From a virus, in IMG/VR virus record IMGVR_UViG_3300044988_000050, positions 1 to 30,134 of that record: a stretch of 30,134 bases of DNA. One strand, given 5' to 3'. Below, piece after piece: positions 21,995-29,870 of this stretch; the stretch's first letter is position 1; every line of letters starts with the position of its first letter. The translations under genes were made by a program, and so were the position numbers. The notes under the pieces are model-generated. The model saw only the letters and a program-made list of their open reading frames with translations. It was not told the DNA's origin and searched no databases.

Positions 21995-22024
21995 TTGATA
22001 ATTGAAACCTTATATATATATTTG
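21995..22024 (+). promoter_or_regulatory. Strong early promoter (TTG-N19-TATATTTG)
   Basis: TTG at 21995-21997 and TATATTTG at 22017-22024 are separated by 19 bases, the spacing of the Bacteroidota housekeeping promoter. Transcription would start near 22031, giving a leader of under 20 bases. It is the best-matched promoter in the window and drives the early gene run. Confidence 0.8.
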
Positions 22025-27332: not shown

Positions 27333-28009
27333 AAGCTCTCAAGATTCGATGTTCTGCCATAGGTAAAATAATGGCAACACCACGCTCTAAAGGCGAACTA
27401 CTAAGCCAAACGGCTAAAACTTACATACACGAACTTGTATTAGAAGAGAAATACGGCATCCGCAAGGACTTTTCAAGCCGTTACACGGACAAAGGGAACG
27501 CAGTTGAGGATTTATCTATCTCACTTGTCAATGATGTCTTAGACGTGAAATTTATTTACAAGAACGAAGAGTATTTCGAGAACGATTGGGTTAAGGGAAC
27601 ACCTGACGTAAACACGGAAGATGTATTGCTTGACGTAAAATCAAGTTGGGATGCTACTACCTTTCCGTTTTTTGATACCGAAATCCCTAACAAAGACTAC
27701 TTCTATCAGCTTCAAGGTTATATGTGGCTAACTGGTAAGCAGCAGTCAATGCTTTGCTACTGCCTTGTAGACACTCCTATCGAAATGGTAGAGGATGAAA
27801 TTCGCAGAGCGCATTGGAAACTGCACAAGATTGATGAGGACTACGATTTAAGAGAAGAGATTTTACGTAAACACGAGTTCAGTCAAGTACCTAAGAACCG
27901 CAGAGTAAAAGTATTCTATGTACAAAAAGACGAACAGGTAATCGACCAAATCAAAGAGAAGATAGGGTATTGCCGTGAGTATTACAACGCCCTAATGAAA
28001 TTCCTATGA
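27329..28009 (+). CDS. YqaJ-like (lambda Exo type) exonuclease
   Basis: The 226-residue protein carries the PD-(D/E)XK motifs of the YqaJ/lambda exonuclease family. RCSAIGKIM lies at the N-terminus, E60 in DKGNAVED, D93 in WVKGTPDV, D102-x-K104 in LLDVKSSWD, and DYFYQLQGYMWLTG (Q127, Q129) further on. The enzyme would resect double-strand ends to feed the annealing protein encoded just upstream, with which it shares four bases. The length is normal for the family. The pair supports recombination-dependent concatemer formation. Confidence 0.8.
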   Translation: MKALKIRCSAIGKIMATPRSKGELLSQTAKTYIHELVLEEKYGIRKDFSSRYTDKGNAVEDLSISLVNDVLDVKFIYKNEEYFENDWVKGTPDVNTEDVLLDVKSSWDATTFPFFDTEIPNKDYFYQLQGYMWLTGKQQSMLCYCLVDTPIEMVEDEIRRAHWKLHKIDEDYDLREEILRKHEFSQVPKNRRVKVFYVQKDEQVIDQIKEKIGYCREYYNALMKFL

Positions 28010-28230
28010 ACCAGAAAGTAGAAGACCCAATTGTACTCAAAGTGATGAGCAAGTTTTATGACCGCTCACAACGAGGAATAGAGAAGTACGGCACTATGTT
28101 AACACGAACTGATTTAGACCTCACCGATTGGTTAAATCACTTGCAGGAAGAATTGATGGATGCCACGCTGTACATAGAAAAGCTAAAGGCAGATGTCAAG
28201 TTTATTGCACAAAAAACTGGACAAGGATAA
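28006..28230 (+). CDS. MazG-like / dATP-dGTP diphosphohydrolase-like small protein
   Basis: The 74-residue protein contains KFYDRSQRGIEKYGTMLTRT, DLTDWLNHLQEELMDATLYI. The 'RxxxGxxKYGTxLxRxDLxxxDWLxHLQEELMDAxLYIE' pattern is widespread in phages and corresponds to a small all-alpha nucleotide-pyrophosphohydrolase-like family with metal-binding E-E-x-x-D residues. Such proteins may adjust the nucleotide pool. Only about half a MazG domain is present, so activity is uncertain. It overlaps the exonuclease gene by four bases. Confidence 0.6.
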   Translation: MNQKVEDPIVLKVMSKFYDRSQRGIEKYGTMLTRTDLDLTDWLNHLQEELMDATLYIEKLKADVKFIAQKTGQG

Positions 28231-28370
28231 GGGGTAAAAATTGCCACATATCTAAACACGAAATGTAAAAGAAATGCCGTAGACGTGCGGAACGTAGCCT
28301 GCCGAGTAAGTGTCGGTTCTCATCGTAGGGAGATAGAGTTATTGCCTTCTTGAGCGAAAAAGGCTTTTTT
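28231..28370 (+). ncRNA. Structured intergenic RNA with terminator, riboswitch-like layout
   Basis: This 158-base gap holds a series of hairpins. GGTAA/TTGCC (28233-28245) comes first. An ACGT/ACGT stem lies at about 28282-28296, GCCGA/TCGGT at 28301-28317 and TCTC/GAGA at 28318-28333. The last is a terminator hairpin, GCCTT/AAGGC (28344-28364), followed by six T residues. The CGTAG pentamer occurs three times. GGTAA at the 5' end can also pair with TTGCC at 28342-28346, which would break the terminator stem, an on/off arrangement. I see no promoter, so it is probably read through from the recombination operon. It matches no RNA family I can name. Confidence 0.55.
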
Positions 28371-28388
28371 AACTAAACAACAAGAACA

Positions 28389-28547
28389 ATGAAAATAGAA
28401 ATAACCCACTACGGACATAAAGCCAGCTATGAGTTTGACCACGAGGATGTGGAGCTTGAGGACTTGATTTATCACATTGAGCAGTTGATTCGATTGACTG
28501 GCTATTCAATCAATGGAACATTAGAAATAGTAAACGAAGAACAATGA
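28389..28547 (+). CDS. Small acidic protein downstream of the structured RNA
   Basis: The 52-residue protein starts 19 bases after the terminator T-run, behind an A-rich leader. It reads MKIEITHYGHKASYEFDHED, then VELEDLIYHIEQLIRLTGYS. It is a compact alpha/beta sequence of a kind I have seen as small proteins in Bacteroidota phages. Its stop overlaps the next start codon (ATGA). It is the first gene that the RNA upstream could control. Confidence 0.6.
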   Translation: MKIEITHYGHKASYEFDHEDVELEDLIYHIEQLIRLTGYSINGTLEIVNEEQ

Positions 28548-29300: not shown

Positions 29301-29330
29301 TTGTTAGATTAAAATATAGTCATATATTTG
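29301..29330 (+). promoter_or_regulatory. Promoter of the sigma-factor gene (TTG-N19-TATATTTG)
   Basis: TTG at 29301-29303 and TATATTTG at 29323-29330 have the ideal 19-base spacing. The site lies between the early terminator and the sigma-like gene, and it is the only such promoter found upstream of the packaging operon. Confidence 0.75.
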
Positions 29331-29345
29331 TTTAGAAATTAACCA

Positions 29346-29870
29346 ATGAACGCACTAAGTATCTTATCGAAATATCACAAGGAATGGCTTAACATAGTCC
29401 GTTTATTTGGTGACAACGAGTTCGCTGAGGACATCGTACAAGATGTGTACCTGAAAGTACATCAGTACAATTACTACGAAAAAATACTAATAGACGGAGA
29501 ACCCAACAGAGCTTTGATGTGGATACTACTAAGAAACACAACCTACAAAGCCAACAAAACTGCATCTAATGACTTATCTATTGAGGTGGTAAGGGATTTA
29601 GCACAGGAGGAGTTAGAGCTACTTAAACACGAATCATTGGAGAACATTTACGACAGAGTAGAGAATGAGATTAGTAGTTGGGATTGGTACGACCAAAAGC
29701 TATTCAGGATATATAAAGACGAAAGAAAGCCAATGCGCCAAATATCAGATGAGACTGGCATCAGTTTAAAGTCTATCTTCCTAACTATAAAATCCTGCAA
29801 GGAAAGAATACGTCAAGCGGTAGGCGATGATTATACCGACTTTTTAAACGAAGAATTTGAATTGATATGA
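29346..29870 (+). CDS. ECF-type sigma factor-like protein
   Basis: The 174-residue protein has a sigma region 2-like segment (NEFAEDIVQDVYLKVHQYNY, about 24-43). A variable acidic linker follows, then a region 4-like helix-turn-helix at the C-terminus (PMRQISDETGISLKSIFLTI, then KSCKERIRQAV). It lacks regions 1 and 3, as ECF factors do. Such proteins redirect host RNA polymerase. It starts 16 bases after its promoter element. It overlaps the coiled-coil gene by four bases, and through the circular junction leads straight into terminase and structural genes. A role in late transcription is the natural inference. Its own promoter is of the host type. Confidence 0.7.
   Translation: MNALSILSKYHKEWLNIVRLFGDNEFAEDIVQDVYLKVHQYNYYEKILIDGEPNRALMWILLRNTTYKANKTASNDLSIEVVRDLAQEELELLKHESLENIYDRVENEISSWDWYDQKLFRIYKDERKPMRQISDETGISLKSIFLTIKSCKERIRQAVGDDYTDFLNEEFELI

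What the first reader, a model, noticed from the sequence alone, without database searches (positions are those of the whole stretch)
28231..28388. Unassigned structured RNA with riboswitch-like switching potential
A 158-base gap holds four consecutive small hairpins, three CGTAG repeats and a final GCCTT/AAGGC terminator with six T residues. The first GGTAA can pair locally with TTGCC (28241-28245) or with a second TTGCC at 28342-28346. The latter overlaps the terminator 5' arm, so the two states exclude each other. It lies upstream of a chain of coupled micro-genes. No known riboswitch or phage RNA family is recognised. It could sense a signal, act as a decoy or inhibit a host system.
Basis: partly seen in the sequence, partly recalled or inferred. 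Interest (0 to 1): 0.7.

Follow-up and report, generated by a model that had tools for sequence, protein, structure and literature searches.

The report
Phage structured RNA beside tRNA mimics
The gap holds a real, previously undescribed small folded RNA that many uncultivated (probably Bacteroidetes-infecting) phages carry once per genome, sometimes just before a tRNA or tRNA-like RNA; it does not behave like a riboswitch, and what it does is still unknown.

Summary
The gap 28231-28388 holds two separable conserved modules. Module B1 (28275-28364, then U6) is a genuine structured RNA: hairpin H1, a three-way junction and a 3' hairpin. In 31 distinct homologues 98% of cells pair, 7 of 18 pairs show double changes, and the covariation score is 0.303 against 0.117 shuffled. 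It has no Rfam match, occurs once in each viral record that has it, and was not found in 395 sampled Bacteroidota genomes. Its neighbours vary: 11 upstream and 32 downstream protein clusters, counted over B1 and a second module, B2.

The 3' hairpin is followed by a U-run (40 distinct contexts) or directly by a tRNA or tRNA-like RNA without U-run (15). B2 shows the same alternation. Many of the tRNA-like RNAs have the anticodon arm replaced by a long variable domain.

Module A (28223-28268) is a nearly invariant element ending in AUGUAA, without covariation.

The proposed GGTAA/TTGCC switch is not supported: both halves occur together in 14 of 53 contexts, and the distal fold is weaker.

Best reading: a discrete phage small RNA whose 3' end is made by a terminator here and, in relatives, perhaps by tRNA processing. 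Existence and fold are well supported; biogenesis and trans function are inferred.

The parts
28223..28268 (+). Module A: nearly invariant element AAGGATAAGGGGTAAAAATTGCCACATATCTAAACACGAAATGTAA; overlaps the stop codon of the upstream gene
   Evidence: gapless 48-column alignment of 48 distinct copies (its core was part of the search pattern); one copy in each of 22 records with a match; no covariation
28233..28245 (+).
   Evidence: 98.8% of cells paired but no double change
28263..28268 (+). AUGUAA, a start codon followed at once by a stop, at fixed distance from the palindrome
   Evidence: ATG in all 48 rows (an ATG within a 7-nt range was required by the selection), followed by TAA in 38; in L130 and L370 the AUG opens a longer reading frame (read)
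28275..28364 (+). Module B1: structured RNA, covariance model R1
   Evidence: 86.1 bits, E 2.5e-23 (this sequence was in the model); covariation
28277..28290 (+). B1 hairpin H1, 5 pairs, invariant GACG loop
   Evidence: 4 of 5 pairs with compensatory changes, 100% of cells paired
28296..28340 (+). B1 three-way junction closed by P2 (28296-28300 with 28335-28340, one bulged base)
   Evidence: 97.4% of cells paired, one-sided changes only
28302..28316 (+). B1 hairpin H2, variable in length
   Evidence: 2 of 4 pairs with compensatory changes
28318..28333 (+). B1 hairpin H3 with loop AUCGUAGG (third CGTAG)
   Evidence: one compensatory change C-G to A-U (L050); otherwise invariant
28344..28370 (+). 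B1 3' hairpin GCCUU/AAGGC plus U6: terminator-like 3' end
   Evidence: sequence; U-run replaced by tRNA or tRNA-like RNA in relatives
28006..28230 (+). upstream gene, 74 aa, PHROG 23240-like, unknown function
   Evidence: used to fetch 80 relatives
28389..28547 (+). downstream 52-aa gene, no family
21995..22024 (+). candidate promoter (TTG...TATATTTG) of the gene block that contains the RNA
   Evidence: pattern scan against the Bacteroidetes -33/-7 consensus TTTG/TANNTTTG (PMC6847099)
29264..29291 (+). terminator-like end of that gene block

Best explanation
B1 is a discrete small structured RNA of about 90-100 nt encoded by phages. Here it is transcribed within a one-directional gene block, and its own 3' hairpin plus U6 ends part of the transcripts and so releases the RNA. 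In relatives that lack the U-run, a tRNA or tRNA-like RNA starts 2-5 bases after the same hairpin, so RNase P cleavage there would make an equivalent 3' end. The RNA most likely acts in trans through its conserved unpaired parts (GACG, GAACGUA, AUCGUAGG) by binding a protein or RNA. Shown: the fold, the conservation, one copy per record, the U-run/tRNA alternation. Inferred: termination, RNase P processing, existence of the free RNA, trans action.
For: Covariation: 98% of cells paired, 7 of 18 pairs with double changes, score 0.303 against 0.117 in shuffles and at most 0.043 with slid partners. Every one of 17 viral records with a match has exactly one copy. Neighbours vary: 11 upstream and 32 downstream protein clusters over B1 and B2, which argues against cis-regulation of a particular gene. 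U-run and tRNA(-like) are mutually exclusive: B1 40 against 15 (12 called by the script, 3 tRNA-Trp cases added by reading), one weak case L025; B2 17 against 7, one unassigned. H1 shows six different paired stems in the U-run class alone, so its constraint does not depend on a downstream tRNA. In L152 a TATATTTG promoter-like box lies just upstream of B1.
Against: No transcript data. Single-sequence folding is no better than chance. The terminator scan did not report the 3' hairpin. Only one locus shows a promoter-like site at the 5' end. The Fisher p-values treat related phages as independent, and the sorting rule was written after seeing the loci. Part of the sample was fetched with an exact pattern over H3, which inflates invariance there.
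Confidence: 0.5

Rival explanations
1. B1 and B2 are leader or spacer modules of phage tRNA(-like) arrays that insulate the tRNA from translated mRNA and help processing; in the window the tRNA has been lost and the module remains.
For: In 15 B1 and 7 B2 contexts a tRNA(-like) follows directly; a similar hairpin TGACGGCTCGGAAAGACGAGC recurs between units.
Against: Most copies have no tRNA yet keep the fold and several different paired H1 stems; a pure spacer needs no invariant loops.
Confidence: 0.25
2. B1 is a cis attenuator: its terminator sets the level of the downstream genes, without a ligand.
For: A terminator-like hairpin with U6 lies inside a gene block that continues downstream.
Against: Downstream genes are unrelated between phages; the U-run is missing in the tRNA class.
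Confidence: 0.12
3. Riboswitch-like switch between local and distal GGTAA:TTGCC pairing.
For: Both pairings are possible in the window.
Against: Both halves are together in only 14 of 53 distinct contexts; 19 have module A without the second TTGCC, 3 the reverse, 17 neither; the distal fold is less stable; no covariation in module A; no fixed regulated gene.
Confidence: 0.04
4. About module A only, compatible with any of the above: it is a translation-initiation element (start-stop AUGUAA or a real start codon), or a DNA site such as a promoter or operator.
For: Fixed spacing to an AUG, purine at -3 in 46 of 48; the AUG opens longer reading frames in L130 and L370; one per record.
Against: Position -3 is G in 31 of 48, where Flavobacterium favours A (PMC6847099); nothing tells an RNA hairpin from a palindromic DNA site.
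Confidence: 0.5

Closest known systems
GOLLD and ROOL RNAs
   Same: structured phage RNAs of unknown function, often near tRNA islands; GOLLD sometimes holds tRNAs (PMC12286853)
   Different: several hundred nt; no Rfam match here; B1 is about 90 nt with its own fold
MALAT1/mascRNA and NEAT1/menRNA
   Same: RNase P cuts at a tRNA mimic with a longer anticodon-equivalent stem and so makes the 3' end of the upstream RNA (PMC11693755); the layout of B1 plus tRNA-like RNA is similar
   Different: human nuclear lncRNAs; no homology; cleavage not shown here; in the window the tRNA mimic is absent
Phage T4 small stable RNAs of the tRNA cluster (from memory, a lead only)
   Same: small stable RNAs next to phage tRNAs, function unclear
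   Different: no sequence comparison made
Rfam L10_leader (RF00557)
   Same: weak model match over 28259-28379
   Different: 21.4 bits against cut-off 44; no ribosomal protein gene nearby; other subtypes gave no such match

Membership tests
riboswitch | aptamer in the leader of a consistent set of genes | tested here: not met
   32 unrelated downstream protein clusters over B1 and B2
riboswitch | conserved mutually exclusive pairings | tested here: not met
   both halves in 14 of 53 contexts; no covariation in module A
riboswitch | binds a ligand | not testable with these tools
   needs probing
GOLLD / ROOL | match to the Rfam model | tested here: not met
   no match in the window, the gap or two other subtypes
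GOLLD / ROOL | located near phage tRNAs | tested here: met
   in a subset of relatives; not in the window itself
intrinsic terminator (3' hairpin of B1) | G+C-rich hairpin followed by U-run | tested here: inconclusive
   hairpin plus U6 by reading, U-run in 40 contexts; the tool's scan did not list it
independent structured RNA family | compensatory base changes beyond controls | tested here: met
independent structured RNA family | detected transcript | not testable with these tools
   no RNA data
RNase P-processed precursor (mascRNA-like) | tRNA mimic directly 3' of the RNA | tested here: met
   in relatives only; absent in the window
RNase P-processed precursor (mascRNA-like) | cleavage by RNase P | not testable with these tools
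   needs an in vitro assay

The most novel reading that the evidence does not exclude
Phages of this group use tRNA mimics with a swapped anticodon arm as RNase P-dependent 3'-end makers for a small structured RNA, interchangeable with a terminator: a phage counterpart of MALAT1/mascRNA. The variable arms would carry functions of their own, for example against host defences.
Probability: 0.2. Interest if true: 0.8.

Novelty: new variant of a known kind. Interest (0 to 1): 0.52.

Why it matters
It adds a well-supported RNA family to uncultivated phages, and a natural alternation (terminator or tRNA mimic after the same RNA) that makes RNase P-based 3'-end formation in a phage directly testable. 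The tRNA-like RNAs with replaced anticodon arms are a separate puzzle worth following.

Tried and rejected
Rfam at gathering and relaxed thresholds: no family. Minimum free energy against shuffles: uninformative. Four cultured or named phages found by protein (P12024L, ctnlZ23, Arctus_1, GDF21): no B1 in the stretches searched. Bacteroidota genomes: 1 of 395 with a 23.6-bit match, judged chance because several pairs are broken and it appears to lie in coding sequence. A relaxed pattern scan added no new true B1: L383 is the L050 contig again, the other new loci are chance. Antisense matches of B1 in the window: a few of 10-12 nt, slightly above shuffled controls, not confined to conserved parts, not pursued. 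Module A as a longer hairpin: the G/T and A/C at the outer position do not co-vary (read).

Full report
No Rfam family matches. Folding the single sequence gives no signal (z +0.66), so the question was taken to relatives.

Eighty relatives of the upstream protein showed that the gap is modular. Module A (28223-28268) is almost invariant and is followed by B1, by a different module B2, or directly by a gene. Module B1 (28275-28364) also occurs without A, in other phages and after other genes. In several larger phages the order is B1, then one or more tRNA(-like) units, then A; L084 has B1 then A with no tRNA between.

B1 was aligned from 31 distinct sequences (A1). The structure was drawn by hand on that alignment and then counted: 98.0% of cells pair; 7 of 18 pairs have changes on both sides; covariation score 0.303 against 0.117 +/- 0.011 shuffled and at most 0.043 with slid partners. 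H1 carries most of it (4 of 5 pairs). RNAalifold found H1 and H2 unaided but proposed other pairs in place of P2 and H3, so P2 rests on one-sided changes and H3 on a single double change. The shuffle control does not correct for relatedness.

A covariance model finds one copy in each of 17 of 30 viral records, and none in 395 Bacteroidota genomes apart from one 23.6-bit match judged chance.

What follows the 3' hairpin was tallied over distinct contexts. B1: 40 with U-run and no tRNA; 12 with a tRNA-like RNA and no U-run; 4 unassigned by the script. Of these four, L103, L145 and L152 begin a tRNA-Trp (ARAGORN calls it in L103 and L152; L145 runs into its contig end) and L025 has a weak TTTATT. 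B2: 17 with U-run, 7 with tRNA(-like), 1 unassigned (L371). The sorting rule was written after seeing the loci, and related phages are not independent.

The tRNA-like RNAs keep acceptor and T arm, usually a D arm, but most are 83-157 nt long, with the anticodon region replaced. ARAGORN, which does call Trp and Gln tRNAs beside B1 or B2, calls none of these; the Rfam tRNA model accepts several at 31-44 bits. They lie in relatives, not in the window.

Neighbouring proteins of B1/B2 fall into 11 upstream and 32 downstream clusters. That, and the presence of both switch halves in only 14 of 53 contexts, argues against a riboswitch. Tested on the window sequence, the distal pairing is 2 kcal/mol less stable than the local one.

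Module A was aligned from 48 copies without a gap (A2); its core, and an ATG within a few possible positions, were required by the search. Its hairpins show no covariation. It may be a translation start element or a DNA site; this was not resolved.

The window carries ERF, exonuclease, SSB-like and sigma-like genes, Bacteroidetes-type promoter matches and its exonuclease is closest to that of a marine flavobacterial phage (40% identity), so a Bacteroidetes host is likely but not proven.

Noticed in passing
L031, L050, L064, L078, L089, L108, L123, L130, L157, L166, L178, L190, L197, L330: tRNA-like RNAs, mostly 83-157 nt, with canonical acceptor and T arm but the anticodon arm replaced by long, mostly unrelated domains; one type (AGUGAGG...) is nearly identical in L050, L090, L123, L139 and L149.
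   Followed up: partly
L005, L031, L047, L078, L190 and others: Module B2 (ATAGGCG...ATAGAACGCTGACGGCTCGGAAAGACGAGC), a second conserved module in the same slot, also ending in U-run or tRNA(-like).
   Followed up: partly
window 28223-28268 and the 48 loci of A2: Gapless conserved module A with a palindrome at fixed distance from AUG, usually AUGUAA.
   Followed up: partly
L205:9289-9363: Phage tRNA with a possible four-base anticodon (ttga) as called by ARAGORN.
   Followed up: no
window 29301-29870: Sigma-factor-like gene (29346-29870) with a Bacteroidetes-type promoter match at 29301; could direct phage promoters.
   Followed up: no
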